Shown here: piece by piece, positions 3,562 to 63,507 of the stretch | Layout of the letters: each line of letters begins with the position of its first letter | How positions within the stretch are numbered: position 1 is the stretch's first letter | NCBI RefSeq assembly: GCF_000189635.1 | Contig: NW_002476452.1 | Coordinates: 492,717-556,716 of the forward strand | From: Tetrahymena thermophila SB210 | Taxonomy: Eukaryota; Ciliophora; Oligohymenophorea; Hymenostomatida; Tetrahymenidae | DNA length: 64,000 bases | Direction: 5' to 3' | The notes under the pieces: model-generated | The model's database searches: none | What the model was told of the DNA's origin: nothing | The model's input: only the letters and a program-made list of their open reading frames with translations | Position numbers and translations under genes: made by a program

Positions 3562-6500
3562 ATGAAATAAAATAAAAGTGCAGAGGCAATCCCTTTTATA
3601 GTTTATGACTAAAAAGAAGGATTTCAATTAAACAAAGATGCAGAAAACTATTTAAATAGTCTCGCATAGGATAGAAAACTTGGTTTAATTTCTATTGTAG
3701 GAAAGTATCGTACAGGAAAGAGTTTCTTCGTAAATAGAGTACTCTTGGATAGATAAAAAGATGAATAGGGATTTTAAGTAGGTCCTACAATTAATCCTTG
3801 CACAAAGGTATGTAGCATAAATTCATTCATTTCATAACTTCAAAAATTTTATTGATTTTTAATATTGCTTTGAATCAATATTTCAGTTTAATTTGATGCA
3901 TTTTTGTTGTTTAGAATTTAAATGATGTAAATAAAACAAAATGGTGAAAATAATTTTTATTTTAATAGGGTCTCTGGCTTTGGAAAAAGGAGCTAAAAAG
4001 TATAGAGGATGAAAATATGGATATTTTATTGATAGATACTGAAGGTTTTGGTGGAATGGATGAAAATTTGAATCATGATTCCCGTATTTTCTTGTTTAGT
4101 TTATTGCTATCCTCATATTTCATTTATAACTCTTAGGGGAGCATTGATGAAAATGCTTTGAATAATTTATCGCTTATTATTAATTTGGCTAAAGATATTT
4201 AAATTAAATCTAAAAATAATGATTCTTAACAAGAAGACCCTGCCAATTATTTTCCTTCATTTTTATGGGTTATTAGAGACTTTGCTCTTTAAATTGTTGA
4301 CTAAATGGGAAACAAAATTTCATAGAAGGATTATCTTGAAAAGGCCTTAGAATTATAAAAGGGTGTGTCTGATGCTATAGAAAGCAAGAATAGGATCCGT
4401 AGATTGATGAAACATTTCTTTAAAGAAAGAGATTGTTGCACTCTTGTGAGACCAGTGGAGTCAGAAAAAGATCTTTAAAAGTATTGAATTAAATGAAAAA
4501 GCAAATTTAATTTTTAATTAACTTTGATTAATTTTAAAAACTTGATAATTCAAAACACTTTCAAACGTAAGGAAGATAGTTGTTTGAATATTTGATTGTT
4601 TGCTGCTTTATTGCGTTAAAAATCTGACAATTTAAATATAGATAGATAGATACATCATTTATTTACAGATACTTTATCCACTAAAGCAAAGAAAATATTA
4701 ATTTCTCATTTAAATATATCACTCAAAATTTTCATAAACATTTTAAAATGCAATATTTATTGTAAAATGTATTATGAAGATTCTACAGATGCTTGAATTA
4801 TATTTAGAAATAAAGAAAAATTTACCCTTTTAGTTTAAGTTTAGCTAAAATTAATCTAAAAATTGAGATTTTTAAAGTTTCTTTTGAAAATTATGAATTC
4901 ATTTATTAAAATATATTTTAATTAAAAGTTTGAATTAAATGAGCAACGAAGACCTTAGACCTGAATTTGTTGAATAAATCCTCCAATTAAGAAAGAAGAT
5001 CTTCAAAAAGGTTAAGCCAAAAATGCTTTGCGGAAGAAGCTTAAATGGTTAAATGTTAGTTGAAATTTGTAAGGCTTACTGTGAAGCTATTAATAAAGGC
5101 AGTCTTCCTAACATTGAAAATGCTTGGACTTATGTTAAGAAGAGTGAAACCATTAAGGCTTTTGATAAATCTGTTTAGAAATTAGATACTATTATTTAGG
5201 AACTACAAATGGATACAGTTGATCCTAACAAAATTGAAACTATTAAAGAAAACGTATAAAATTTTTTAATAGAAATTAAAATTTTTTTTTTTAATTTTCA
5301 TGTTAAAATTCAAATTTAAAAATAATTAATTTATTATAGGCTAGATAAGAAATGAAAAAAGTACTCAAAAAAAATGCTCTTGGTGAAGAAGAAGACTTGC
5401 AGGAGTATTACTAATAGATTGATGAATAACTTACTGAGAAGTTTCGTGATTTTAAAAAATAAAATAAACTTTAATGGAAAGTAAAAAAGCAAAAAATAAA
5501 AATTTTAAATAAATTATTTTTCAAATTTAATTAAAAAGAGAAAATATGCTGAAATGTGCAACGAGCAAGTGACTAAGATAGAAAAAAAATTAAATAATGA
5601 GGAATACAATAACTTTTTAGATTTTCAAGCTGATTTACTTAAATTTAAGGAGGAATTTGAAAAATAAGTTCCTTAGAAGGACTTGGTAGCTGAAAAGTTT
5701 TTCACTGAAATATCTGAAAGACTTCACAAATTAGCTGCTGAAAAGGTTAATAAAAAGTAGGAAAGAGAGCACTATAAGCAACTCAAGCAAATTGAAAACA
5801 TCTTAGCAATTACAGAAAATGATTTAAAAAATAAGAAAGACGAATTCGAAAGTGAAAGAAGACGCTATGTAGATAAAATTAATTTACTTGAAAGGGACGT
5901 AGCAACGTTGAAAGCTAATGAAAGCATTCATCAACAAAAAATGTAAATGCTACAAGAGGAAAATGAAAAATTGTAAAAATCATATCAGTTATATAAAACA
6001 ACTTACAAGGAAGAGTCTTTACAAAAAGAAAAGGAAACTGTCAAAAGAATAAAAGAACTTGAAATATCTCTCGAATAACATAGAACAGATGGTATTAAGA
6101 AAGCAGCAAGTTTTGAAAAGTAAGTAGCATTGCTTGAACAAGAATCTCAATTCAATCAAAGAGAAAATAAATCTCTCAGGGAAAAGATCAATCATCTTGA
6201 AAATGAAAATAGAAAGCTTAGATCAGACAACACTAGCCATCTTTCAACCATAGACGTATATTAATTAATATATTTTGTTTAATATTTTTATTAAGGATAT
6301 ATCAATTTACAAATTATAGCGTCTTAAACACCAAATCGATGAGTAAATAGACAAAAGTAACAGAGAGCTAGTTTATGTGAAAAATGAATTCGAAAAGAAG
6401 GTTGAAGAAATTACTTCTGAAACCGATAAAAAGAGAGATATTATCAAATAACACTCTGAATTTATTATAGAAAAGACTTATCTTGAAAACCAAGTCAGTT

Positions 6501-8250
6501 TCTACAAAAATTAACTCGAAGAAAATAAAAAGCTTCACGATGCTTTGTTAATAGCTTTGCAATGTAATCAATTTATTAATTTCCAAAGATGTTTTTAATA
6601 TATTTTTATCAACATTAATAGAGGGTATGAATAAAGATGACTAAGAAAGTAATAACGAACTCGTTGAAACAAATAGAAATCTCTCAGCAGCCATGGATAA
6701 GATAGAATAGAGATGCAAATTGTTAGAAGAGAAGAATGAAAAATTAAAGCAATATAAAAAAATGTTTAAAAACAGCTCAGCTTTACAATGTACTCATTGT
6801 TCTAAATTTATTGCCAACAATATTTTCTTGAATCATGTCAATAGTTGCATTCAAAAGAATAATGTAGGAAATACTTCAATTAATCTTTCTGGCTCTGCTG
6901 TTAATGTTCCTGTAATGTCAAATATGCCTTACAACACTATTCCAGCAAATTTCTTAAACTTAGATCCTAACTACCTCATAATATCAATTAATTAAACAAT
7001 GGTCAGAGAATCTCCTGATAACAAAGTAATTCAATAAATTAATTCTTTTTTGATAAGTGAAATTAACAAATTTTAATTTAAATATATATAGCCCTATACT
7101 GAGTATTTGATATAATTGAGCTATCAAAATATTAAATGGGAAGTAGCAAGAAAATATAAAAACTTTTGTGAATTGCACTAACAACTTATGAGTACATTCC
7201 CAGGTTTAAAATTCCCAGATTCTAGTCTTGCTATTATAAATTCATCAACAGATATCAACAATGTCTTCTACAGCAAGCGCCCAACAGTTATAGAAGACCG
7301 TCGTAAAGCTCTATAATAATATGTGAGAGATCTCGCTAAGATGGACTTGGTTAGAAACTCTAAACCTTATAAGAATTTCTTAGAAATCGACAAGAACGTT
7401 GAAATGAAGTAAATCAGTCAAGGAAGCATCTAACAACAAAAAGGAATGGTAGTAGGAGCAAGCGGTCATCATAACACTCTTAGTAATAATAATGATGATT
7501 TAAAGAGTATATTAAACTCGATAGTTGATGGAAACATTGTCAATTCTCACCAACAAATGTAACAACAACAATAGTAGTAATAGCAATAATAATAGTAATA
7601 GTTCATCTCTCAATAACTCATTTAATAGTAGTAATAACAATAACAATAATATAACTTCCAATAACAATAACAGTAGCAGTAATAATACTTAAATTAAGAA
7701 TAATTTATGTACAATCCTCACCAGAATGTAAGTTAATCTAGCAATTTGTATAAGGTTGATAAAAAAATGATGCCTCAAAGCCCAACATCATTCTTAAAAT
7801 CTTGGAATGAAAAGAACATAAATAAAGAAAACAACCCTCGCACATCTTCTACCTCACATAACTAGTAAGTTATTTACTTTTCAATCAAAAAAATGTTTTG
7901 ATTCTTTTTTTTTCTTTTTGAACTTACTAAATCTAGTAAAGCTTTTGATATTTATAAAAAAATATAGAAACTATGATGTGGTCATATAAAACTAACTGAA
8001 CAACAAAAATTAAATATAATCCCTTCATGGAAATGCACAATTAAGATAAGGAGTTCAGTCAAAGCATCTTAAAATAGATTTGTCGAAGAAAAGGTAAAAA
8101 TAAATATTTTAATTCAAAATAATTAATTTAATTAATTAAAATGAAATTTAAAAAAATAGAAATTCCCAAGTTTTAACAAAAAGTGATTTTGATATGCTTT
8201 AAGATAATTCTAACTATTACATGCATAACCATACTATAGATTATAATTGA
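3562..8250 (+). CDS. Guanylate-binding-protein GTPase fused to C2HC zinc knuckle and PX domain
   Basis: A large GTPase of the GBP (dynamin-like) family with extra C-terminal modules. The G domain begins a few residues in. The P-loop GKYRTGKS is at about residues 47-54, switch region DTEGFGG follows in exon 2, and the GBP-specific RD motif (WVIRDFAL) replaces NKxD. The GBP helical domain follows (LRPEFVEQI...IENAWTYV), then a long coiled coil, a C-x2-C-x11-H-x3-C knuckle near 6789-6850, a PX-like phosphoinositide-binding region (about 7020-7400) and a glutamine-rich tail. At least six introns are visible. The long intron at about 4475-4928 splits the G and helical domains, and splicing gives the typical LQNLNQMSNEDLRPEF join. 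The last two exons, to the TGA at 8248-8250, are less certain. The family hydrolyses GTP and acts on membranes; the PX domain suggests endosomal targeting (inference). Confidence 0.82.
7561..7690 (+). repeat. Polyglutamine tract in the GBP-PX protein, written mostly in TAA/TAG
   Basis: Three runs of glutamine, separated by short Phe/Ile/Ser and Tyr/Asn patches, encoded by mixed CAA, CAG, TAA and TAG codons. With the standard code the stretch is full of stops. The mixed codons argue against simple trinucleotide slippage and for selection on the protein tract. Confidence 0.8.
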
Positions 8251-22484: not shown

Positions 22485-25400
22485 TCAAAATTAGAAATCT
22501 ATATAAAATACAACTAATCTTTTTAATTTAAGACACTTGCTTGCTATTTTCAATTGTTATGATTCTTAGATTGAGTTTTAACTTTATTATAAATTAATAA
22601 AAAAGTAAAAAATTAAGCAATTTTTAAATTAATAATTAAAAAATATTAGCATAATAAAAATAAATCAAATTAAAAGCTAGCAAATAAATTAAAAAATTTG
22701 TTTTAAATTTCTTTTTTTAACTAAAAATACTTTAATTCAAATAAAATAGATTCTTTTTACCCAAGTTAAAGTGTCAATTTTAATAGATTAGTGCAATTTG
22801 CTAGAGCAGGACCTAAGCTTAATGCACAAATTTCACTTATTTAATTTTCCCTTTTTAAATATTGAATAAAAATTATATTATTAATCAGTTATAAACAAGG
22901 AAAAATTAAGAAAAGATGTGTAATAATTAAAAATAAATCAATTAATAATAAAAATAAGAGTTGAAAATAATAAAAAAAATTAGTTAAATTAAGAAAATAT
23001 AAGAAAAAAATATTTATTTAAAAAAAATAAATAAATCAAATAAAAAGCAAATAAACAAATTAAAAGATTTATATTATTTTAAATTCATTTTTATAAGGAA
23101 AAATATCACAAATCAAAGCAAATAAACTGTTTTTACCTAAGATTAAGGTCCAAACTTAAGAGTTTAGTGTAATTTACTTAAGAAAAACCTAAGCCTGATG
23201 CACCTTCATCAACAATTTAATTTCCCCTTTTTAAATATTGAAGAAAAATATATTATTATTTAGTAACTTAGAAGGAAGGAAATAATGAAGATAAAATATG
23301 AAATAATAAGAAATGAATTAATTAATAATAAAAGCATAAGTTGAGAATAAAAAATTGAGTTAAATTAAGAAAGATAGAAAGAAGAATAAAAGAAATTAGT
23401 AAAATAATAAAGAAAAATAAATCAAATAAAAAGCTAATAAACAAACTAAAAGAGTTATATTGTTTTAAATTCATTTTTACTACTAAAAATATCAATTAAT
23501 TAAAAACAAATAAACTCTTTTTACCAAAGACCAATCATCAAATTTGAGAGATTAGTGCAGTTTGCTAAAATAGAACATAAGCCTGATGCACCAGTGGCAC
23601 CAATTTAATTTTGCCTTATTAAATATTTAAGAACAAATATATTATTAACTAGTTACATAGAAGGAATAAAAGATATGAAATAATAAGAATAAATTAATTA
23701 ATAATAAAACCAAAAGTTTAAAATAAAAAAATGAGTTAAATTAAAAAAGATAGATAAAGAAAAACACAGGTACAATAAATAAGAAAAAGAAAAATAAATC
23801 AAATAAAAAGCTAGCAATAAATGAAAAGAGTTAAATTGTTTTAAATTACTTTTTTAACTAAAAATACCACAATTCAAAAAAATAAACTGTTTTTACCCAA
23901 GAAAAAGTTTCAAATTTTAGAGATTAGAGCAATTTGCTATAGCAGAACCTATTCTTGATGCAACTTCATCACTTATTTGATTTCTACTTTTTAAATATTG
24001 AAAGTATATTATTAATTAATTAATTACTTAGAAGTAAAAATGTAGAATAATATGAAATAATAAGTAATGGATTAATTAATAGTAAAAGTAAAGGTTGAAA
24101 ATAAAAAAAATGAATTAAATTAAGAAAGACAGAAGAGAATAATAAACAATAGTTCTATAAAAATGAAAAAAAAAAATAAATCAATTAAAAAGCCAATAAA
24201 GAAATTAAAAGAGAATATTATTTTAAATTCATTTTTATTACTAAAAATATCAAAATTCTAAACAAATAAACTGTTTTTACCAAAGATTAAGTGCCAAATT
24301 TGAGAGATTAGCGCAATTTGCTAAACCAGAACTAAAGCCTGATGCAAATATTGCACCAATTTAATTTCCACTTTTTAAATATTGAATAAAAAATATATTA
24401 TTAATAAAACAAAAAAAAAATTATGAAATCATTAAGAAATCAATTCATTAATAATAAAAGCAAAAGCTTAAAATAAAAAATCAAGTTAATTAAGAAATAT
24501 AGAAAGAAAAAAAACACAATTCAAATAAAAAAGAAAAAGAAATATAAATCAAATAAAAAGATAATAAGCAAACAAATTAAAAGATTTATATTATTTTAAA
24601 TTCATTTTTATAACTAAAAATATCGCAAATCGAAGCAAATAAACTGGTTTTACCTAAGATTAAGGTCCAAACTTAAGAGTTTAGCATAATTTACTAAAGA
24701 AAAATCTAAACCTGACGCACTTTCATCTACAATTTAATTTCCCCTTTTTAAATATTGAAGAAAAAATATACTATTATTAAGTTACTTAGAAGGAAATAAT
24801 GAAGATAAATTTGAAATAATAAGAAACGAATTAATTAATAATAAAAACAAAAGTTTAAAATAAAAAAAGGAGTTAAATTAAAAAAGATAGAACAAAAAAA
24901 CACAAGTACAATAAAAAAGAAAAATAAATCTAATAAAAAGCTAATGAACAAATTAAAAGAGTTATATAATTCATTTATATTACTAAAAATATCGCAATTT
25001 AAAATAAAATTTTTTACCAAAGATTAAGAGTCAAATTTGAGAGATTAGTGCAATTTGCTAAACAGCAAAATAATCCTGATACACCTATTGCACCAATTTA
25101 ATTTACCCTTTTTAAATATTGAAGAAAAAATATATTTATTATTAATAAGTTATCTAAAAGCAAAAAAAAAAAATATGAAATAATAAGAAATGAATAAATT
25201 AATAATAAAAGCAAAAGTTTAAAATAAAAAAAATAAGTTAAATTAAGAAATATAAAAAAAAAAACACAAGTACAATAAAAAAAATAAATCAAATAAAAAG
25301 CTAATAAACAAATTAAAAGAGTTTTTTTGTTTCAAATTCATTTTTATAACTAAAATTATCACAATTTTAAACAAATAAACTTTTTTTACTCAAGTTAAAG

Positions 25401-28400
25401 TGTTAAATTTGAAAGATTAGTGCAATTTGCTAAACCAGAACCTAATTTAGATGCTCCTTCATCACCAATTTACATTCCACTTTTTAAATATAGAAAGAAA
25501 AATATATTATTAATTAGTTATTTAAAAGCAAAAAAAAAAAATGAAATAAAAAGAAATGAGTTAATTAATAATAAAAGCAAAAGTTTAAAATAAAAAATGA
25601 ATTAAATTAAGAAAGATAGAAGAAAAAAACACAATTACAAATAAAAAGCTAATAAAGAAATAAAAAGAGTTATATTTTTTAAATTCATTTTTATAACTAA
25701 AAATATCACAATTTAAAACAAATAAACTTTTTTTACCAAAGATTAAGTGTCAAATTTGAGAGATTAGCACAATTTCCTAAACCAGAACCTAATCCTTATG
25801 CACCAGTGGCGCCAATTTAATTTTCACTTTTTAAATATTGAAGGAAAAATAAATTTTTAATTAGTTACTTAGAAAGGAAAAAATTAAGAAAATATATGAA
25901 ATAATAAGAAATATATTTATTAATAATAAAAGCAAAAGTTGAAAATAAAAAATTAGCTAAATTAAGAAAGATAGTAGAAAAAAAATATAAATCAAATAAA
26001 AATCTTAAAAACAAGTTAAAAAAATTATTTGGTTTTAAATTAATTTTTATAACTAAAAATTTCTTAATTCAAAACAAATAAACTATTTTTACAAAAGAAA
26101 AAGTGCCAAATTTGAGAGATTAGTACAATTTGCTAGGCTAGAACTTAATTCAGATGCTCCTTTATCACCAATTTAATTTTCGCTTTGTAAATATTGAAGA
26201 AAAAATAAGAAATGAATTAATTTAATAAAACTAAAAGTTTAAAATAAAAAATGAGTTAAATTAAGAAAGATAGAAGAAAAAAAAAATTATAATAAAAAAA
26301 AAATAATAAATCAAATAAAAAGCTAACAAACAAAATAAAAAAGTTATATAATTTAAAATTCATTTTTATAATTATAAATATCATAATAAACAAATAAACT
26401 GTATTTACCAAATATTAAGTTTCAAATTTGAGAGATTAGTGCAATTTGCTAAGCCAGAACCTAAGCCTAATGCGCCAGTGTCACCAATTTAATTTTCCCT
26501 TTTTAAATATTGATTAAAAAATATATTATTAATTAGTTACTTAGATGGAAAAAATCAAGAAAAAATATGAATTGAATTAATTAATAATAAAAGCAAATAT
26601 AAATCAAATAAAAACTAATAAATAAATTATAAGAGCTTTATTGTTTTAAATTCATTTTAATAACTAAAAATGTCACAATTACAATTGAAAACAAATAAAC
26701 TCTTTTTACCTAAGAGAAAGTGCCAAATTTGTGAGATTAATGCAATTTGCTAAACCAGAACCTAATCCTTATGCACCTATTGCACCAATTTAATTTCCCC
26801 TTTTTAAATATTAGAGAAAAAAATATATTATTAATTAGTTACTTAGAAGGAAAAAATGAAGAAAAAATATGAGATAATAAGAAATGAATTAATTAATAAT
26901 AAAAGCAAAATTTCAAAATAAAAAATCAATTAAATTAAAAAATATATATGAAAATAAATAAACACAAATAAAATAAAAAAGAAAAAGAAAGATAAACCAA
27001 TAAAAAGCTAACAAACAAACAAAATAAAAGAGTTATATTATTTAAAATTAATTTTTATAACTAAAAATATCACAATTAAAAACAAATAAACTGTTTTTAC
27101 CAAAGATCAATTGTCAAATTTATGAGATTAGTGAAATTTGCTATATCAAAACCTAAGCTTTATGCGCCAGTATCACCAATTTAATTTCCACTTTTTATAA
27201 AATTAATTATTAATTAATTACTTAGAAAGAAAAGTTGAAGAAAAAATATATGAAATGAAATAAATAAAAAATGAGATAAATTAAGAAAAATAGAAGGAAA
27301 AAAAACGCAAGTTCAAAAAAATGAAAAATATATCAAATAAAAGCTAATAAAAAAAGTAAAAGATTTATATTGTTTTAAATTCATTTCAATAACTAAAAAT
27401 GTCACAATTGAAAACAAATAAACTCTTTTTACTTAAGAGCAAGTACCAAATTTGAGAGATTAGTGCAATTTGCTAAACCAGAACCTAAGCTTGATGCACC
27501 TATGTCACCAATTTAATTTTCACTTTTAAATATTGAAAAAAAATATATTACTAAAAATTATTCGTTTTTTTTTTGAAACCAAACTGAACCAAATATTTTT
27601 TATTAGATATTACGAAAAGATTGTGTATGAAAACATCGAAGAAAAAAGATTTTGAGCAATAAAATTTGAACTCTTCATTTAAAAGTTTTTTTTGATTTAA
27701 ATTAACTTTTATAACTAAAAATATCACGATTCTAAATAAAAAACTTCTTTTACTCAAGATTAAGTTTCAAATTTGAGAGATTAGTGCAACTTGCTAAACC
27801 AGAACCTAAGCTTGATGCACCTATGTGGCCAATTTAATTTTCACTTTTTAAAATTGAATAAATAATATATTATTAATTTGTTCTTTAGAAGTAAAAAATG
27901 AAGAAATAATAAGTAATGAAGTAATTAATAATAAATCTAAAGTTGAAAATAAAAAAATTAGTTAAATTAAGTAAGATAGAAGAAGAAAAAGCACAAATAA
28001 AAAAAATAAATCAAATAAAAGTTAATAAACAAAGTAAAAGATTTATATTGTTTTTATTTCACTTTTATAATAAAAAATATCACAATTCTAAACAAATAAA
28101 TTTTTTTACTTAAGATCAAGTATCAAATTTTAGAGATTAGTGCAATTTGATAAAGCAGAACCTAAGCCTTATGAGCCAATTTCATCAATTTTATTATAAC
28201 TTTTTAAATATTGAATAAATAATAAATTATTAATTTGTTCTTTAGAAGGAAAAAATAAAGAAAAAATATGAAAAATTAGAAATTAATTAATAATAAAAGT
28301 AAAAGTTGAAAATAAAAAATGACTAAATTAAGAAATATATAAGAAAAAAAACACAAGTACAATAAAAAAGAAAAATAAACCAAATAAAAAACGAATAAAC

Positions 28401-28858
28401 AGACTAAATTAGTTGTATTACTTTTATTCATTTTTATAACTAAAAATATCACAATCCAAAACAAACAAATAATCCGTTTTTAATGTGTTAATAGAAAAAA
28501 TTAATAATAAATACAAAATATCAATAATGTAAAAAAAATTTTAAAAATTGATAAAGAAAATTTAGGTAAAATAACTAAAGAAATATTTTTTTAATAAAAT
28601 GAAGGTATTTTGGTAAAAATTTCTATCATAAAAATAATATTATTTTTTAATTCAAATGTAAAAAATAAAGAAAAAATTAATAACAATAATTTTTATAAAT
28701 TAAACATACCTCAGCTTAATATGGACAACCTAATGAGATTATAGTGTAGAGTTTAGAAACTTTTTATATTAAAAAAATTAAATTTAAAGTATATTTTTTT
28801 AAAATAAATAAATAATTACTTTTTCTAATTTGTTGTAATATTAAATCTATTATATCAT
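22485..28858 (-). CDS. Leucine-rich-repeat protein built of 16 identical-length LRR exons
   Basis: A ribonuclease-inhibitor-like LRR protein of 527 residues from 19 exons. Exon 1 (28858-28820) and exon 2 (28759-28710) give MIQQIQYYNKLEK... and ...VVHIKL. Sixteen exons of exactly 90 nt follow, at plus-strand starts 28110, 27754, 27433, 27101, 26710, 26409, 26093, 25737, 25390, 25018, 24654, 24281, 23897, 23525, 23137 and 22761. The last exon (22539-22485) adds KCLKLKRLVVFYIDFQF and TGA. Each 90-nt exon starts with one base that completes a codon and ends with two bases of the next. Each encodes one repeat of the type ENQIGDIGASSLGSGLAN followed by CTNLSNLTLNL. I translated all 16: none contains TGA or a frameshift. 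Introns are 211-301 nt within the array and are paralogous to each other. No signal peptide, kinase or other domain was seen. The likely role is protein binding. Confidence 0.87.
22600..28482 (-). repeat. Tandem array of an LRR exon+intron unit (16 units of about 300-390 bp)
   Basis: Start-to-start spacings range from 301 to 391 bp. The conserved core on the plus strand is GAGATTAGTGCAATTTGCTA (complement of the exon). The exon is flanked by a TTTTTAC donor complement and a CTTTTTAAATATTGAA acceptor complement. Intron sequence is also shared, including ATAAATCAAATAAAAAGCTA and TTAATTAATAATAAAAGCAA. The homology stops on the right near 28482, just inside a donor site, leaving an orphan intron piece without its exon. 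On the left it fades inside the last intron near 22600. Units starting at 23137 and 24654 are much closer to each other than to their neighbours. Confidence 0.92.
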
Positions 28859-46000: not shown

Positions 46001-49000
46001 CTTAATATTTATGGAATAGATAACCCAAATGAATAAGAAGATGAATTTTTGGAAGAGCTTCAAGATTTAGAAGAAGAAGAAAAATTTACATATCAAGCAA
46101 ATTCAGATATTAATCCCCAAAGAAGAATCTTCTAATCTTATATTCAACTCTTTTCTTAAGTATTTGAAGAAAAAAAATATTATTTAGTTAAAATTGTTAG
46201 ACTTCTGCTTGAAGTTGTTTAAATAGATGATTTAACTATGAGTTAACTCACTTCTACTCACCATAGAGAGAGAAAAAGAGCTAAAAATAAATTTGATCTC
46301 CTTCAACTTTGTCAATCAGAAGTAATTTTTTATATTTTTAACTTTTATTTTTTTATTATTTTCATATACTTAATTTTAAGATTAGTTCATATTTATTTAT
46401 ATTTATATTTATTTGTCATTTTTTCATTTTATTTCCTTCAGTCGAACAAAATTTTCTTTTTTTTGTTTTCAAAAAATAAATTTAAGTAAAAAAATACTGT
46501 TAATCATCTACTCTTTATTAAAATTAAAATACCTTAATTAATTAGATAGAAATTTTTAAAATATTCATTCTTAATTTTTAGGGTTGAGTATATAATTATT
46601 TTTAAATTTACTAATAAATAGGTTGCAGGATAGGAGATATTTATTCATGCCTTAAATTTAATCAAAGTTACTTCTACATATGATGAGCTTTAAGAAGGGT
46701 TGACTTTTATGATTTGTATGTTAAATAGAGGTAATCAATTTGCATAAAATTGTGTTCTCAATTATCTTAAGAAAAATACCGATAGTCTAGTTGATTTCTT
46801 TTCTTTCTTAAGAAACTTCTTTAATCAAGAAATTACTTAGCAAATTAAGGGCATGTTTGATTAATAGGTAAATAACTTTACTTATTCTTTTGATTAAAAA
46901 TTATATTTATAACCATTTTTATTACTTTCATAATATGATTAAAAAAAGAGTTTAGATTTAACTAAATTTAATTGAATGGTTTTTATTTTTTATCTTATTG
47001 GGAATTTTTCAAATTCGTTCATTAATAAATCTAATAATATTAAAAGGCTATTTCAAATATCCCAACTGAATTTGAAATTCTTGCTTTAAAGATTCTTAGA
47101 CTGATTTAGCTTTTCTGTGAAAATGTAAATGAAGATTTCTAATACTTTTTGATGAAATAGATTGAGGATGAAACGACTTAAATTTCTAATTACAATGTCA
47201 TATTAGAAGTGTCAACCTTCCTTTCTATATTCCTCGAAGATGATTTGCTGCAAATGGGTCGTAAATAGAATATTATTATCCAGTGTATTGATACATTAAA
47301 TGAGTGTATTAGTGGGTAGCAAGAAGTTGTTGATTGTGTTGGTAAAATATCATTTTATAAAATCAATTCATTTAAATTAAAACAATAAATTTTTTTCCAT
47401 TTAAATTATTTAAAAATTAAAAAAAAAATAGCTTAAAACAAAAGATTGTTCATCTATCTAAATGAAAAAATTATAAGAAACAATTTCAACTTTGCCCAAA
47501 AAAAAATTGTAAATCCTACAAAAGATGAATTAAGAAGATTTGAAAATTACACAGCTAATTTAAAGAAGAACTTAGAACTTTTCTAGAGTGCTATTAAATT
47601 TATTCTTACAATAGTCAGTGGTGTTTCAAAGAGCGAGCATCTCGAATTTTTGCTTGATTAAGTTTAAACTAATAAATTAATTAGGATGATTGATCAAATT
47701 TATGAATAGAGAATCAAACCAAAAGAAGATTATGTTCAGATGGGTTAAGTATGCTAACATTTAAGCTAAGATAATGATGATGACGATGATGATAATGGTA
47801 AAATATTCTGTAGTGAAGATTTTTGCATTGAAGGAAAAGTTACATTAATCGATCAGCTAATCATGTCAATTGGCTTTAATGTATTTATTTTCTTCTATTA
47901 CATTAGAGACGCTTTCCCAGACTATTAAGATAAATTGTTGGCATTCCATTTAGATGAGAAGAAAGATTTGGAAATAAATTTAGATTTATCAGATTTTGGT
48001 CTTTCTGCTAAACCATAAGAAGAAAAAATAGATGAAAAGAAACAAAATCAATAAGTATTAAAGAATATCAGAAAATAAAAATCTTCTCGTAATAATTCAA
48101 TTAGAGCTATTTCTAATTCGAAAGGTTAATCTGGAATTACTAATGAAGAATAAGATGATGATAGCGAAAAGGATTAAAATGAACAAGACGAAGAGGAAGG
48201 TCCTAAAAAATCTTAAGAAAACATTAACGAAGAAATTGATAAATTTAGTGCACGTAAATTGCTCTCAAAGGGTTTAGCTCATTAGATACTAAAGGATATA
48301 GCTACTCTAGAAAATAACGAACCAAATGATTAGTAAAAAGACACTAATGAAAATATATTTACAGGAAAGTCAAAATATCAACATATTTTTGACGAGCATG
48401 TTGATGACTCATATTTAGTAAAGGATAAAAACAGAGATTACTTTAAATTCTTTAAAAATTTTGTTGGTTCTGTGGAAATATCAAATTAACATGATATTCT
48501 TAAAAAAGTGTACTTCTAGAAGCCATTTTACACAAAATATCTCACTCCTGACATCAAAAAGCACTTGGTAAAAATTATATAAAAAAAAACAATAAAGATT
48601 CAAAATAAAATATAAACGTTGATGATTTAATAATTAAAATTGTAATTGATTTAATAAAAAGGTTTATGAGTCAGATAGAGATTCAGATACAGAAAGATTA
48701 ATGTTTTTAATAGATCACGCTACTTACTACGAGGAATAAATGATTCACAAATAAAAAATATCATAATGGGGAGTAAAGATTATCATATCTAATTAAATTT
48801 ATAAATTAAAATTTCATTTAAAATATATAGATATTCTCTTATGTTGCAGATAAATGGAGATTATATAAATAAATATCTTACTATTTAGTTGTGGCTTTAA
48901 CAATAATTACTCTTGCAACTTTTGGTTACACAGAAGAGACTGATAACGATGTTGCAAACAGCTCAAACAATGAAAATATCAAAAATACATTTGTAGTTGT

Positions 49001-50222
49001 ATCTTATATTTAATTAATACTTAGTTTTGCTATCTTAGTAAGCTGTGCAATTGAAAGATTCCCAATTTCAGTTTATAGAAATGTAGAGAGCTAAGTTTAT
49101 GAAACTATTTAAAGGCATAAAAAGAATGCAGGTTTTCCTGATGACAGTATTAGTAGTGTGTACAACTTAATAGCGAATAAACTATATAATGTTCTTTCAA
49201 TTAAAAATGCAAAATCAAGCTTATATGTTAAAATTTTATTAGTATGCTTTGATAAAGAAAACATATACAATCTTTGTTATTTGATAATAACAGGATTCGC
49301 TTTTTCCAACAATCTCATTTATGCTTTCCTTCTCTTAGATATAGTAAAGAGAAGTGAAGATTTGCAAAATGTCATCTCTTCAATCACTAAAAATGCTCTC
49401 AGTTTGCTTAAATTCAGTTTTTTAGGTTTGGTTATCATGTACATTTATGGTATTATAGGTAATCAATCGTTTAAAGGCGATTATCAGCCTGAAAATGGAA
49501 CCATAGGTGATACATTTATCCTAACCATCACTTCAACAATAAAGTAAGGTCTTAAAAATGGTGGTGGTATAGCTGAAAGTTTACGTTCAGTTGACTATGA
49601 TGAACACACTTTTTGGTCTCGCTACTTCTTTGATTTGACTTTCTTTATAGTTATTAATATGCTCTTTATTTAGATGATTTTTGGTAATATTTCAATCTTA
49701 AATTAATTCATATTTAAAGCTATTTAATAATAGGTATCATTCTCGACACATTTGGTGAGTTAAGAGATAACAGATAAGAATTGCTTGCTCTTGTCACAGA
49801 CACTTGCTATATTTGTGTAATTTACAATTATTTAAATAAATTATTTTACCATTTATATTTACTTTATTCAAAAGGGTTTAAGCCGTAGATTTGTTGAAGC
49901 TAACAGTGATGAAGATTGGTATCATCACATATATATGGAACATAACTGCTATAATCTTCTCTTTTACATTATTTACATAAGAAGAAAAAGTGAAAACGAC
50001 TGTGATGCCTTAGAGAAATATATTAAAAAATGTTTAGATAGGAGTGAAGGCGAAAACAAGTTGCAACTTAAGCCTGTTGATTTTACTCCCATTGGAAAGA
50101 GTCTATCTATACAAAACTTCAGAAGTAAAGAAAAAGATCATAATGAAAGTGAAGAACACGATAATGAAGCGCATAATGAAAGCAGCGAAAATGGAAAGAA
50201 ATAATCAGAAAAGAAGGACTGA
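37064..50222 (+). CDS. Inositol 1,4,5-trisphosphate receptor/ryanodine-receptor family calcium-release channel
   Basis: A giant tetrameric Ca2+-release channel of internal membranes. ATG at 37064; exon 1 ends 37155 and exon 2 opens at 37238. Some 15-20 short introns follow, and TGA is at 50220-50222. The product is probably well over 3,000 residues. The N-terminal region has the suppressor/MIR blocks (YGDIVYFKYY...SKGIVSG; NVIYGQEIQLEHIYSKCIVT; IGDVVYIYNR). A long helical RIH-type region follows. The C-terminal channel has several membrane segments (AFSNNLIYAFLLLDIVKRSE; LLKFSFLGLVIMYIYGIIG), a pore loop NGGGIAESLR, and the inner helix and gate FFIVINMLFIQMIFGIIIDT. The linker is FGELRDNRQELL with the zinc-binding CYIC...HHIYMEHN. 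These are diagnostic of IP3/ryanodine receptors. Odd point: the filter reads GGGIAE where animal channels have GGGVGD/GGGIGD. The acidic, disordered C-tail ends ...QSEKKD. Confidence 0.92.
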
Positions 50223-56107: not shown

Positions 56108-59100
56108 ATGAGTTAAACTAATCTTCCATAAAAGAAAACGGTCTTACCGCCTACATTATGGATAAGACCTGGTATACAGATTGATAATCAATTATTTATG
56201 ACAATATAAACACACACACACCAATTTTAATAATTTTTAATTTAGATGTTATTAATTATATATCATTAATCTATAAAATATTTTTATATTAAGATTTAAA
56301 ATATTTACTAATTAATTATTTCTTGTAGGTCAGGTGTGCTGGGTAGGCAATTATGATATCTAAAAGAAAGAAGTCACCAATTATTTTGCTGCTTTTATTT
56401 AGACTTCTAATCATTCTTTATAAAATGCCAGAGTAAAGTACTTGGATAATATTGATGCTCCAACTGAAGTAGCTATGAAATTTATACTAATGAGAAGCGA
56501 TGATAACAAAATAAATTTTAATTCTATGGATAATTTGATTAATTTGCCTATATTAAACGAAGCTGAATTGATTCAATGTATTAAAATTAGATTTTAAAAT
56601 AATCAGATATTTTCATACGTAGGATAAACGCTTATAATTGTTAATCCATTTAAAGATATATTTGATTTGTTTAGCAATGAAATCATTGAAAATTTTAAAC
56701 ATTGTGCCAGAAAACGTGGTTTTATACTAAAACAGGAGTAGCCTCACATTTATGCAGTGGCTGCTCTTACTTATAATCAGTTATTTGAATACTATAAATC
56801 TTAGGCTATTGTAATTAGTGGTGAAAGTGGTACAGGCAAAACTGTAAACACTAAATTATGTATGAAATTAATAGTACAAATGAGCTCATAAAAATAAAAT
56901 ACAAATTAGCAGAGTCACCAACTTGAATAGTAGGTTATATATTTAGGTTTTCTTATTATTTTTACTCTAAAATAAAAATATAAATTAATATTTTAATTTT
57001 ATTGTTTTTTAATAACAGATTATTAATTGCAATCCTATCCTAGAAGCGTTTGGCAATGCCAAAACTATTAAAAATGATAATAGCAGTAGATTTGGTAAAT
57101 TTGTTAGTATTTTTATTGACATGAAGCTTGAAAAAATTATGGGTGCGAGAACATAAAGCTATCTGCTAGAAAAATCAAGAGTTATTTCATAATCCAAGGA
57201 AGAAAGAAATTATCATATTTTTTATAGTTTAATGTATTCTAATGATTCAGAACTTTTACAATCCCTTGGTTTGAAAGAAAAAAATTAAAAAGTGAATTTG
57301 ACCAAATTTAATTATCTTAATAAATCAGATTGCTACACTGTAAATACCATTAACGATGAAACATCATATTTTGATGTATGCTAAGCATTAAGCACTCTAG
57401 GTATTTTTTAATACATCCTTATATAGATTCTTTTAATTTGTATTAAATATTCTTTTAACACAAACAAATTGATATTAAAAATTAGAGATTGACACTATAG
57501 ATCCTAAGTATATATGGCAAATTTTAGCTGCAATTTTGCATTTAGGAAATTTAGAATTCGATGATAGATACGCTGATAGTAATTCAGATTAGCCCTGCTA
57601 AATTATACAAAGTGGCAGCTCCACATGTGAGAATATATCTAGCTTTCTAGGAGTGCCACTTGAAAAATTGAAAGAAGCTTTGCTGAAAAAGATCATTAGA
57701 GTAATCAACTAATTAATTACTTTTAAATTGAATATATTAAGGTTTATGAAATGATTTATTAAAAGGTAGGTAATAAAGAGCCTACAACGTCTTCTAAGCA
57801 AAAAATAGATGTTATTTCTCACCTGCATTCGTTATCTAAGGATTTATATGACAAACTGTTTTTTTGGCTTATTAAAAGAATGAATGATAAACTGATGCAA
57901 CTCTCAGAAAAAGAAATCCAAATAAGAACTATGTAAAATGAAATGAAGCAAATAGGATTATTAGATATATTTGGTTTCGAAGTATTGCAAAATAACTCAT
58001 TTGAATAGCTTTGCATCAATTATGCCAATGAAGTTCTTTAGTAGCTTTACATCGAATATACTTTCAAAGCAGAATAGGTAGAATTTGAAGAAGAGGGTCT
58101 TCAAGACGAGCTCAGTCAAATTCCCTTTTCTGATAACAACGAAGTAATAAACTTACTTGATAAGCCTCCTTTCGGACTTTTTCATTAAATTGATGAAAAT
58201 TGTTCTCTTGCTACAGCAGGAGATGATGGTCTTTATAATAAAATAAAAGATTAGCACAAAACAAATCAGCTTTTGATAGTCCCAACAATTAAAAGCGATA
58301 AATTCACAATTTAGCATACTCCTAGATAAGTTTAATACTCAATCTTAGGCTTTAGAGCAAAGAACAAAGATGAAATGAATCTACAATTTATTTAATTGCT
58401 TTCAGAATCTAAAAATCCTATTATAAATGATATATATTATGCTGAATTATAGCAGCTTGTTTAAAATCAAAGTAATTAAAAAGTAACTCAAGCCAAAGAT
58501 AAGTTTATAGGCACTAAGTTTAGGAAATAAATAAATTAATTAATGTCAGAACTAAGATAAAGTGATGTACATTTTATTAGGTGTGTAAAACCTAACGAGA
58601 GTAAATAACCCAATCAATTTAATGATGATATCATATTAAACTAGCTAAGATATTTAGGTGTTCTAGATACTATCAAGATAAGGAAAGAAGGTTTTCCTGT
58701 AAGAAAAGAATACAAAGACTACTTCAGAAAATTCGGAGAAATTATGGATTTAAATGCAACATTCACAGAACTTGATAAATAAAAAGCTGATTTTAGAAAA
58801 TATGTAGTAAATGCAGAATTATGGAAAAACAGTTTCTAACCAAAAGGTAAAAAATTCTTCTTAATTTAATCATTTAAAATTCTCTTAATTGATAAGATAT
58901 TTTATTTTTAAATTTATTTTTTATAATACTAAATGAATACATATATATGAGGAATTTAAGAAAATATCAAAATTATTTTTATACTTAAAATTTTTATACA
59001 ATCTCAATATAAAAATATTTATAAATTAATAAAAATAAATGAAAAATTTAAGAAAACATCAAAATTTTTGTTTGTTTTCCACCTAAAACAAAAACAATAT

Positions 59101-62100
59101 TTGCTCTTAATATAAATTTATAAAATTTTCAACAATAAAAGATATTTATTTAGCTTTCTAAAAACTTAAATTCTAAGCTTTGAGAAAATGTGTTTTAATA
59201 TTTGAAAAGATAAATTAAAAAAATGCCCTTTTTATGCATTTCAATTTAAAAAAATATTTATCTAATTATAATTTTTAAGATAATAAGAAATAAGTAGTGT
59301 TTGGAAAAACTAAGATATGTTTCAGGAGCGAAGCTTACGATTAACTAGAATTAATTTATTAAGAAAAAATTAAGAAAAAAACTGAGGCCACAATATAGAT
59401 TCAAAGGATAGCAAGAGGTTTCTTGGCAAGAAAATAAACAAAAATAGTTAGAAATAAACTTTTACTGATAAATAGGTGGCTGAAATCTAGGTTGATTCGT
59501 ATATAGTTTCTTAAAAAGAAGAAAGCTGTAGACAGAATTAAAAAATTTTATAAGTAAGTATTATTTAAAAAGATAAGAAAGATGGCTATGGTGATCTAAC
59601 TCTATATGAAGAGATAATTGCACCTTAGAAATTACTAAAATAGTATTAAATAGATCATAACCACTCAAAGATATATAAAAAAATAAGTTTAAGTGTGGAA
59701 ATAAAGAAGATACGTAAACTTCAAAAGAACTATTGTGGTAACTTATTTATTTATTATTAAATATACATATTAAGAGAATAATTATCTAATTAATTAAAAG
59801 CTGAATTCTCTAAGCTAGGCTTGGTACAAAATCACAAATAGAAATGCTACTATGATTTAAAAAATAATCAAAGGTTATTTAGTGAGAAATGTTTTTCATG
59901 CTGATAAAATTAAACATACTAAAATTCACATGGTTAGATGGCACTAAAATAAAGCTGCTACCAAAATTTAAAAAATTATTAGAGGAGTTTAGGGCAGAAA
60001 ATACGCAAAACATAGAATGAACTGCATATTGTTTATACAGAGACACTATAGGATAAAATGGTTAAACGAATTTAAGTAAAAGCTAGAGAATGCAGCCATC
60101 AGCCTATAAGTAAATAAATTTTAATTTCTTAATTATTTACTTTGTTTTATTGATTCTTTGATATTTAATTAATTAACCAATCCTTTTTTTAATGCTATAA
60201 TTAATTTCAACAGAAAATTTACAGATAAAAATCTGAGAATTCCAAAAATTAAAGAAGCTATTTTTTAAATGAAGACTTAGCTTTATAAAATATACAAATT
60301 TCAGAGTAAACTGCTATGATTACTTCCAAAATGTAATTACTCGATTAGTCAAGAAAAGATTGCACTCTCATTTCAAATTTAGACTCCAAAGAAGCTCGAA
60401 TAAATAGAGACCATCTAACTCCAGCAGACAAAAAAATTTCATTTTTCCTTTTTGTGTTAGATTACGAGATCCTCACAGATACAAGCGAAATTTATGATCC
60501 ATTATGGAATAAGTAATTTTCTTACCTATAAAAAGAAATGCTTTAAACAAGCCACGACATTACTCATATTTAAGTTGGTAAGACATATGAAAAAAAAAAA
60601 TTATCTTAATTATCAAATAAAAATTTTTAATTTTAAATAAATTAATTAGGTGACACGCATAGCATTGCAAGCTCAACAAATGGTAAAATTTATGGATGGG
60701 GATGGAATGATTTGTGCTAAATTGGTATTGATTCAAATGAGGGTTATTTTTGTACTAAAAAGCCTATTCCTATACCTTGGATTGAAGAAATAACAAGACC
60801 AAAAGCATTTAGTGTGGGAAGCAATCATACTTTTGTTTTGGATGTAGATAATAATTTATATGTCTAAGGAAAGAATAACTTAGGTAAACTTATTATTTTT
60901 TAAAGAAAGGATTTTTAAAATAAATAAAAAATAGGTTAATTAGGATTAGGTCATAATGATATAGTGCATGATCCTGAGAGACTAGATCTAAATATCAAAC
61001 CAGATGATAGAATTAAAATTATTAAATCTAGATACGAATAGTCTGTAGTAGTTACAGAAAAAGGAGTTGTCTTTATTTGGCCATTTTAACTTTAAAACAA
61101 TAATTGGATAAATGAGCCGTTTGAACTAGCTTTCCCTTCATCTAAAGTCCTAATATCCTAAGTCTCTTGTGGTTTAAAGTTTTCTATATTTTTATCAAAT
61201 AATGGTGTCCTATATTCAATGGGATCAAACGAATAAGGCGAGCTTGGTTTGGGAGATTGTATAGATAGAAATATTCCTTGCTAGATTGAGTCATTGAAAA
61301 ACTCAGCAGAAAAAATTTAATAGTAAATTAAACAAACATCTCATTTATTTTTATATTTAATAAATTTCCTTTGACTTTTGACGAATTAAGCTATAAAAAT
61401 TTTTTTATGATTGCTATTAAAGTTAAAAATATAAATTTATTTAATAGCAAGAAATATTTTTTTGTTTACTTTTTTTTGCTTTTCAAAGATTTTTAAAGAA
61501 ATTTTTTTTTTAAATTAAAATAATTATTTTAATAATTAATTCTATGATAATTTGATATTTTAAGTAAATTTATTTTTAAATGAAAATTTAAGAGTTGAAT
61601 GTGGGTAGAAACACACGATTTGCAAATCAGGACTGAATAAAATATATACTTGGGGATTCGGTGCAAAAGGATAGCTAGGTCATGAAAATAAATAAAACGA
61701 ATATTATCCTAGATAAGTTAATCTTAGTGCTAATTACAGCAAGCAGAAAATAATGCAAGTATAAGCAGGTCAAAAGAGTAGTTTAGTTTTATTCGATAAC
61801 AAAAAAATATTGTGGTGGGGAACTAATAATCACTTGAAATATTAAAGTTCACCTGTTGAAGTTGACTTGTCATAAATCCACAAAACTATGAATAGTTAAG
61901 ATTTTTATCCTGTTAGAATAGAAACAACATGGAGTAAATCTGTATCGCTCACTTATATTAGAATGGCAGATACACGAACATTTGATTAGGGAATTTAATT
62001 TAAACAAAAGCTAATAAATACTCTTATTCAAAAATGGCAAGAGTCTTATCTAAATACAAGTAAATTTATTTTCAATTTTCTAAAAAAAATTGATATAAAT

Positions 62101-63507
62101 AATATTAATTGCTTATTTTTCTTGTAAAATTAGTGGATGTTCCTTTTTTCGATACCATTTCGAAAAATATTTCAAATCGCCATGTCCTCAAACATTTTTC
62201 AGCATATAAAGTAAAAATTTAAGAAAAAAAAATTTAACCTGATATAATATATTTTAATAATTAGAGAGTAGGCCCTAAATACCCTAAATAAAAGGCAGAA
62301 AAATATTATGTCTTATAAAACTCAAGTCCTATCAAAAAATAGGATGAATTTTTTGAAGAAAATACATAAGGCAGCAGATTTTAAAATTCTTCTGTCATAA
62401 CATAATCGTCTCCAGGCAAACCTTTTAAAGATGTCTTTTAAAATTTTATAGAAAACTCTGCAAAAAAAGAAAATAAGATTTTAAAAAGCTAAAATTAATA
62501 AGAAGGGGGTTTAGATGAAGTAAATTTTTTATTTTAAAAAATAGTTATTAAAGTTAAAATTATATATATAGTTTGTTTCTCCTGTTGCAAAATTGCAGGG
62601 GAAAGAAGAAGAAAATTTACTTGATACTATGAAAGTCTCACCAAACAGTCTATTTGAGAAATACAAAAATGAAAATAAAAACCAATAGAAAGTCTCTTAA
62701 TTTGAAATTAATATTCATAAAGTACCTTCAATGGGCCCTAATTAGAATATGCTTTAAAAAATGAAAACTTTATAGCCAACTAAGCTCTAGCCTCCGATGT
62801 TTGGAATAGTGAAGTAGGTAAGTAGCAACCTACCAGCAAATAGAGGATCAATAGATTCAGAATCATCTCAAATTACTTCTTCTAGATCAAAATCAAAGGA
62901 AAAACCAAAGCAAAACGTTAAATTTAGTGATAACTAATTCTAAAAAAGTTCATTTTCATCTAATAACAGAGATGGACCTAATTAAGATTAAAATGAGTAA
63001 AGGTAATTTGCTACAAAATATAATATTCCCACCTCAGAATAAGGAATGCTTTCATCTAAAGTTATATATGCCTAAAATCAATATGCAAATAACTAGGAAT
63101 CTATAGCTCCCTAAAGAGATTCTTCTCAGAATCAAAACTATAGAAAAGAGAATAGAGTATTGGAAAAAACATATTCAAAATAAAATATGTAAAGCATAAA
63201 AGAATTGAAATTTAACAATGTAACTAAAGATCAAGTGAAATACCCATTTATAAATGATGAAAAATATGAAAATAAAACTTCTGAAAATGACGAATTTATC
63301 AACTCACTGTAAATATTTATCATAATATCATAAAATTAAAAAAAAATGTATTAACAAATTAATAGGCACTAAAAGCTAGCTGGTATAAAATCCAGAATGC
63401 AAACTCTAACACGAATTCCAAAAGAAGAATGGACACTGGATGATCATTAATTTATGAGTGAAGTCTCTAATTCAAAAATGATAGAGTTTTTCAAGAGTAT
63501 AAGCTGA
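56108..63507 (+). CDS. Unconventional myosin with IQ neck and RCC1-repeat tail
   Basis: An actin-based motor with an unusual tail. ATG 56108 (MSQTNLPQKKTV); TGA 63505-63507; about a dozen introns; roughly 1,850 residues. An N-terminal SH3-like [10 protein letters not shown] precedes the motor. The motor keeps the P-loop GESGTGKT (about 56818-56841), switch [11 protein letters not shown], switch II DIFGFE, and the converter-side block [13 protein letters not shown]...[21 protein letters not shown]. The neck (59380-60110) has several IQ-like motifs ([36 protein letters not shown]). RCC1 repeats then form a likely beta-propeller (about 60650-61980): GDTHSIA.., [63 protein letters not shown] disordered Ser/Gln/Lys-rich tail follows, ending ...[21 protein letters not shown]. 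The exon at 63365 is read in the frame giving [11 protein letters not shown]; another frame stops earlier, at 63444. Confidence 0.9.

What the first reader, a model, noticed from the sequence alone, without database searches (positions are those of the whole stretch)
22485..28858. A 16-unit 'satellite' that is really a gene: one 90-nt LRR exon plus its intron, tandemly amplified
Read in the + direction or with the standard code, this 6 kb looks like noncoding minisatellite. On the minus strand with TAA/TAG=Gln, each unit contains an exon of exactly 90 nt bounded by gt and ag, encoding one 30-residue LRR (consensus around GASGLGSGLANCTNLSNL). All 16 are open, same length and same phase, while the flanking introns, though clearly homologous, vary in length (211-301 nt). 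Perfect exon length against drifting intron length is the signature of selection on a coding repeat. Symmetric phase means units can be gained, lost or skipped without frameshift, so the gene is a ready-made generator of length variants.
Basis: partly seen in the sequence, partly recalled or inferred. Interest (0 to 1): 0.88.

Follow-up and report, generated by a model that had tools for sequence, protein, structure and literature searches.

The report
Tetrahymena 90-base-exon leucine-rich repeat gene
The repeat is most likely a real gene of the ciliate Tetrahymena thermophila, built from 16 similar 90-base exons that each encode one leucine-rich repeat; it belongs to a large gene class already published in 2019.

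Summary
Observation confirmed. On the minus strand, window 28858-22485 holds 16 exons of exactly 90 nt, all AG/GT-bounded, phase 2 and open when TAA/TAG=Gln (in-frame TGA 0 of 464, other frames 23 of 480 and 10 of 464). With a first and a last exon they predict a 561-aa LRR protein. Peptides of these cap exons match 150 and 147 places in the genome, own locus included. TERT residues point to T. thermophila. This is the '90-bp exon, phase 2 intron' LRR class of Xiong et al. 2019 (PMC6564038), so the kind is already known.

Site by site, leucines are constrained and a few residues change faster than the global synonymous rate. Over 329 sampled exons the two most variable residues flank the splice junctions; selection there is suggested, not proved. 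Exon and intron histories look uncoupled, which fits the published exon shuffling. Splicing and expression are untested here.

The parts
28710..28858 (-). first (cap) exon, 149 nt, ATG at 28858, ends phase 2 before GTATGT
   Evidence: its peptide matches 150 places in the genome, own included
28200..28709 (-). intron 1, 510 nt; its 3' 270 nt align to the repeat intron
28110..28199 (-). 90-nt LRR exon 1 of 16
27754..27843 (-). 90-nt LRR exon 2 of 16
27523..27753 (-). intron after exon 2, middle unlike the other array introns (57-66% identity over the alignment)
27433..27522 (-). 90-nt LRR exon 3 of 16
27101..27190 (-). 90-nt LRR exon 4 of 16
26710..26799 (-). 90-nt LRR exon 5 of 16
26409..26498 (-). 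90-nt LRR exon 6 of 16
26093..26182 (-). 90-nt LRR exon 7 of 16
25737..25826 (-). 90-nt LRR exon 8 of 16
25390..25479 (-). 90-nt LRR exon 9 of 16
25018..25107 (-). 90-nt LRR exon 10 of 16
24654..24743 (-). 90-nt LRR exon 11 of 16 (91% identical to exon 15)
24281..24370 (-). 90-nt LRR exon 12 of 16
23897..23986 (-). 90-nt LRR exon 13 of 16
23525..23614 (-). 90-nt LRR exon 14 of 16
23137..23226 (-). 90-nt LRR exon 15 of 16
22761..22850 (-). 90-nt LRR exon 16 of 16
22582..22760 (-). last intron, 179 nt
22485..22581 (-). last exon, 97 nt including TGA, C-terminal cap
   Evidence: its peptide matches 147 places in the genome, own included, many weakly

Best explanation
This is one gene of the Tetrahymena thermophila macronucleus, of the published 90-bp-exon LRR class (most like its young 'group III'). 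A conserved first exon, 16 tandem LRR exons of 30 codons split by phase-2 introns, and a conserved last exon are spliced into a 561-residue protein in which Pfam finds only LRRs. Shown by sequence: the exon architecture, the reading frame, the relatives and the constraint on leucines. Inferred: splicing and transcription; that units arose by unequal crossing over or conversion in the germline nucleus (published proposal; the pattern here agrees); and that the LRR surface binds varied partners, since leucines are nearly fixed and the residues next to each splice junction vary most.
For: Architecture. Open frame against other frames. LRR: Pfam LRR_6 E=7.1e-12; solved LRR relatives by sequence, best E=3.1e-12. 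Species: the exon stretches of the TERT fragment are identical to chain 2r4g in the printed alignment; that 2r4g is from T. thermophila is recalled. Sister arrays: 259 DNA matches in the genome, own array included, 36 of 1144 candidates scored. Caps. Constraint: leucine at positions 12, 16, 22, 25, 27 and 29 in 309, 312, 315, 325, 316 and 292 of 329 exons; site 25 has 38 synonymous and 7 nonsynonymous changes, p=5e-13. Published class: PMC6564038, abstract, passages and sections 9, 10, 11, 15 (part 1 of 2), 25 and 27 seen.
Against: No RNA evidence was available. Codon-position bias among units is absent on average and pooled omega is 0.77-0.90, so the average signal of purifying selection is weak. 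Some sister genes look damaged: of 15 arrays with a first-exon match, 2 (L042, L043) show an in-frame stop in it, and 6 of the 150 listed first-exon matches hold a TGA (my count). The per-site test at the junction codon gives omega 0.96, p=0.64, so diversifying selection there is not shown by that test. The published consensus sequences that define group III were not available, so the group is assigned by resemblance. A very close sister species of T. thermophila is not strictly excluded by one protein fragment.
Confidence: 0.9

Rival explanations
1. A recently silenced array (pseudogene) whose exons are still intact because too little time has passed.
For: Pooled omega among units is 0.77-0.90, near neutral. 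The paper reports low expression for species-specific genes (passage). Some sister genes look damaged: an 89-nt unit in L041, in-frame stops in the first exon of 2 of 15 arrays.
Against: The 16 units differ by about 24% on average, yet none has a TGA or a length change. None of 329 sampled exons has a TGA where a neutral star model expects 46.9 with one; the 329 were filtered by length and splice sites, not by stops, and 20 of 349 hits failed that filter. Leucine sites are constrained. This argues for family-wide constraint but cannot exclude that this one gene died recently.
Confidence: 0.08
2. A noncoding minisatellite in which the open frame is an accident.
For: TRF reports parts of it as tandem arrays of period 347 and 316.
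Against: Frame-specific absence of TGA, exact exon length against variable introns, similar cap exons at many places.
Confidence: 0.01
3. The exon variation is mostly imported by conversion or crossing over between arrays, not made by selection at single sites; exons and introns simply have separate histories.
For: Exon and intron distances are nearly uncorrelated over 23,454 unit pairs (r=0.05), and the closest exon lies in the same locus for only 63 of 268 units. Pairs chosen for close introns have more distant exons, and pairs chosen for close exons have more distant introns. In 10 close pairs synonymous as well as nonsynonymous exon change exceeds the intron rate (1.72x, CI 0.88-2.59; 1.53x, CI 1.29-1.74).
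Against: Exchange alone does not explain why variation concentrates at codons 30, 1 and 28 and exceeds the diversity of saturated intron-like sites there.
Confidence: 0.45

Closest known systems
Tetrahymena 90-bp-exon LRR array genes, groups II/III (Xiong et al. 2019, PMC6564038)
   Same: Same species, exactly 90-bp exons, phase-2 introns, runs of 3 or more, six conserved leucines, repeat unit near the published 347 bp (301-391 here), variable unit number.
   Different: No structural difference seen. This report adds a map of variable residues and an exon-versus-intron comparison. The terms 'positive selection', 'diversifying', 'hypervariable' and 'concave' do not occur in the paper's held main text; its figures and supplements were not seen.
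Ribonuclease-inhibitor-like LRR proteins (NLR LRR domains, RanGAP)
   Same: Sequence matches to solved chains: 5irl E=8.1e-12 (listed as 'Uncharacterized protein'; that it is a NOD2 is recalled), RanGAP 1yrg and 1k5d E=5e-7.
   Different: Only the repeat domain is found here by Pfam at E 0.001.
Lamprey variable lymphocyte receptors and plant NLRs
   Same: Analogy only: an LRR scaffold with variable surface residues (recalled; one search was a listing, no paper of it read).
   Different: No somatic assembly shown, no signalling domain found, no evidence of immune function.

Membership tests
Tetrahymena 90-bp-exon LRR array gene | at least 3 consecutive exons of exactly 90 bp | tested here: met
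   16 consecutive
Tetrahymena 90-bp-exon LRR array gene | phase-2 introns before the 90-bp exons | tested here: met
   all 17 introns phase 2 in the predicted model
Tetrahymena 90-bp-exon LRR array gene | encodes LRRs with leucine conserved at six positions | tested here: met
   LRR_6 E=7.1e-12; six leucine sites, 292-325 of 329 sampled exons
group III (youngest) subset | masked by a published LRR consensus repeat sequence | not testable with these tools
   consensus sequences are in supplements that were not available; DNA-level repeats are detectable
group III (youngest) subset | long introns, peak about 257 bp in T. thermophila | tested here: met
   15 introns 211-301 nt, median 274; 269 sampled introns, median 281
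group III (youngest) subset | pericentromeric or subtelomeric place in germline chromosomes, association with the REP retrotransposon | not testable with these tools
   the genome held is the somatic one; the REP sequence was not at hand
expressed protein-coding gene | spliced transcript | not testable with these tools
   no RNA data held; the RNA-seq example in the paper is another gene (figure legend)
plant-type NLR or receptor kinase | NB-ARC/NACHT or kinase domain with the LRRs | tested here: not met
   Pfam finds only LRR_6 in the 561-aa protein
noncoding satellite | no frame constraint | tested here: not met

The most novel reading that the evidence does not exclude
The introns of this LRR family sit exactly in the protein's most variable slot. 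The codon split across each junction and the next codon are the two most variable residues of the 30-residue repeat. Every recombination in an intron would therefore build a new pair of surface residues as well as change repeat number, making the arrays a germline cassette system for diversifying a binding surface.
Probability: 0.3. Interest if true: 0.65.

Novelty: already known. Interest (0 to 1): 0.3.

Why it matters
The array shows how a gene can pass for a satellite when the wrong strand or genetic code is used, but the class is published. The added point matters more. If the residues at every exon edge really are under diversifying selection and are re-paired by recombination in the introns, the Tetrahymena LRR arrays would be a testable single-celled model for how a genome keeps making new recognition surfaces.

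Tried and rejected
Satellite reading: rejected on the frame test. Average codon-position bias as proof of coding: tried and absent, so not used. Overall omega as proof of positive selection: rejected, 0.77-0.90 in the pooled sets; the one exception, 8 pairs with 1-4 differences, gave 2.14 on only 2 synonymous changes. Per-site test at the junction codon: not significant (omega 0.96, p=0.64). Codon 1 gave omega 1.69, p=6e-4, and codon 3 gave 2.24, p=7e-3, before correction for 29 sites. 'Exons evolve faster than introns' as a flat claim: weakened, because choosing pairs by close exons reverses it; see the full report. Ordered block duplication: identity by unit lag shows no clear period. Exons 11 and 15 are 91% alike with flanking introns 91% and 88% alike on global alignment, while a multiple alignment gave 82% for the downstream introns, so identities depend on gap placement and a shared duplication is possible. 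Intron 2's odd middle: four other copies at 82-86%; the C85 copy lies about 1.4 kb from a first-exon match on the same strand; its nature is open. tRNA scan (bacterial settings) and Rfam scan of the window: nothing. Structure prediction was not sent, because the spliced protein is not given letter for letter by the DNA, as that tool requires; so 'binding face' rests on recalled LRR geometry.

Full report
What is there. The window is the last 64 kb of contig C99 (492717-556716 of 556716) and ends in 100 bases of GGGGTT repeat, a telomere. The genome has 101 Mb in 445 contigs. The exon stretches of its TERT fragment are identical to chain 2r4g in the printed alignment; I recall that chain as Tetrahymena thermophila, so I take this to be the T. 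thermophila macronuclear genome. On the minus strand at 28199-22761 there are 16 exons of exactly 90 nt, each preceded by AG and followed by GT, all in the same phase. With a 149-nt first exon (28858-28710) and a 97-nt last exon (22581-22485) the predicted coding sequence is 1686 nt, 561 residues plus TGA. The 15 internal introns are 211-301 nt; the first intron is 510 nt and the last 179 nt.

Is it more than chance? In the coding frame 0 of 464 codons are TGA; in the other two frames 23 of 480 and 10 of 464 are. A profile of the 16 exons found 349 hits in the 42 sequences given to it (the window and 41 loci; 34 of the 42 had hits). Of these, 329 are exactly 90 nt with both splice dinucleotides and 20 are not: three cut by locus ends, five with both sites but 75, 84, 87, 87 or 89 nt, the rest without one of the sites. 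The 329 have 0 TGA in 9541 in-frame codons, against 422 of 9870 and 241 of 9541 in the other frames. A neutral star simulation from the consensus expects a TGA in about 2.1 of 16 and 46.9 of 329 exons.

The ends of the gene. The first-exon peptide has 150 matches in the genome (150 of 233 candidates scored, E up to 0.1), the listed ones ending at query residue 47-49, where this exon ends. The last-exon peptide has 147 (150 of 157 scored), many of them weak. Both counts include the gene itself. In 23 arrays defined in the window and the fetched regions (some of only 1 or 2 units), a first exon was found for 15 and a last exon for 16, the window included. GT stands at the phase-2 place after 13 of the 15 first exons and AG before 14 of the 16 last exons (my count from the printed bases). 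Of the 8 arrays without a first exon, 7 begin within 600 bases of the end of the fetched stretch; of the 7 without a last exon, 3 end near one. Against intactness of all sisters: 2 of the 15 first exons (L042, L043) show an in-frame stop, and 6 of the 150 listed matches hold a TGA (my count).

What is known. This is the class described by Xiong et al. 2019 (PMC6564038; abstract, passages and sections 9, 10, 11, 15 part 1 of 2, 25 and 27 seen). That paper reports tandem arrays of exactly 90-bp exons in LRR genes with over 98% phase-2 introns in 10 Tetrahymena species, a repeat unit of about 347 bp in T. thermophila, and 1 to 51 such exons per gene. It reports 934 group III genes there and proposes exon shuffling by unequal crossing over and possibly a retrotransposon. 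The listings of my four searches showed no later paper on these genes. Whether this particular gene has an identifier there I could not see.

Selection. Pairwise divergence among the 16 exons at codon positions 1, 2 and 3 is 0.232, 0.273 and 0.213, so there is no third-position excess. With a mutation spectrum taken from 61 close, partly overlapping intron pairs, omega is 0.90 among the 16, 0.83-0.90 for five distance bins of all exons, 0.77-0.90 for pairs with close introns, and 2.14 for the bin of 8 closest exon pairs (2 synonymous changes). A tree-based count over 329 exons gives 0.78. The average hides two kinds of site. Leucine site 25 has 38 synonymous and 7 nonsynonymous changes (p=5e-13). 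Some sites change faster than the global synonymous rate: codon 1 at 2.76x, codon 28 at 2.17x, the junction codon 30 at 2.69x. But the site omega is 1.69 for codon 1 (p=6e-4, uncorrected), 0.75 for codon 28 and 0.96 for codon 30, because synonymous change is high there too. So selection at the exon edge is suggested, not proved.

Where the variation sits. Amino-acid entropy is highest at residue 1 (3.79 bits, 329 exons) and at the junction residue 30 (3.77 bits, 269 junctions); the other 28 residues are at or below 2.84 bits. The intron bases next to the junction are quieter: +3 to +6 at 0.08-0.47 bits, -3 to -12 at 0.31-0.64 bits, though splice signals may hold them, and columns further out reach 1.3-1.5 bits, partly from length changes. 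Columns 2, 4, 83 and 89 of the exon exceed the diversity of a site saturated to intron composition (heterozygosity 0.69-0.71 against 0.60; bootstrap intervals over loci within 0.658-0.723); the median third position of codons 2-29 is 0.15. In the protein residues 30 and 1 are adjacent; in the DNA they are an intron apart, which favours an effect at the protein level. From recalled LRR geometry they follow the repeat's strand, next to the presumed binding face. In the window's 16 exons alone the top columns include 83, 89, 3 and 1, but also 19, 21, 78 and 45.

Exon and intron histories. Results depend on how pairs are chosen, so I give each way. (a) Chosen by close introns on both sides: in 10 pairs using each unit once, though several come from the same arrays, introns are on average 6.2% apart and exons 13.2%. 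Corrected for base composition the exon rate is 1.65 times the intron rate (95% CI 1.31-2.01), synonymous 1.72 (0.88-2.59), nonsynonymous 1.53 (1.29-1.74). This choice favours low intron values. (b) Chosen by close exons, the order reverses: with 0-4, 5-8 and 9-12 exon differences the introns are 5.9%, 11.1% and 14.1% apart, more than the exons (6, 22 and 515 pairs). (c) Chosen by the upstream intron alone, the exon and the downstream intron can be compared evenly: 5.2% and 5.2% (6 pairs), 12.2% and 5.2% (12), 17.7% and 9.0% (40), 22.0% and 13.6% (201) (without composition correction). So exons vary more than introns in most but not all bins, and the two are loosely coupled: over 23,454 pairs r=0.05. 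The closest exon lies in the same locus for 63 of 268 units and the closest intron for 74.5 of 257 (ties shared), against 3.3% by chance; the loci are partial, so these are rough. This fits exchange of exons among arrays on top of local duplication, as the paper proposed.

Verdict. Interest is low to moderate, carried by the map of variation at the exon edges, which the paper's held text does not discuss under the words searched.

Noticed in passing
window 63901-64000: One hundred bases of perfect GGGGTT repeat at the contig end: the window is the end of a macronuclear chromosome, with the array about 35 kb from the telomere.
   Followed up: partly
window 27540-27700: The middle of intron 2 is unlike the other array introns; it has four other copies in the genome at 82-86% identity, one (C85) about 1.4 kb from a first-exon match on the same strand.
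   Followed up: partly
window 57664-63507 +: Neighbouring frames with a myosin head, IQ motifs and RCC1 repeats in a row, possibly one gene: a myosin with an RCC1-like tail.
   Followed up: no
window 46939-50222 +: Neighbouring frames with RIH_assoc and ion-transport domains, possibly one IP3/ryanodine-receptor-like channel gene.
   Followed up: no
window 6381-7901 +: Open frame with a PX domain.
   Followed up: no
L041 5512-5604 +: One sister unit with both splice dinucleotides but an 89-nt exon, a likely broken unit in another array.
   Followed up: no
window 28200-28709 -: In a local alignment to one unit, the last 270 nt of the first intron match almost the whole repeat intron and the first 240 nt do not, so the repeat homology begins inside the first intron. 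Other arrays also have a long first intron.
   Followed up: partly
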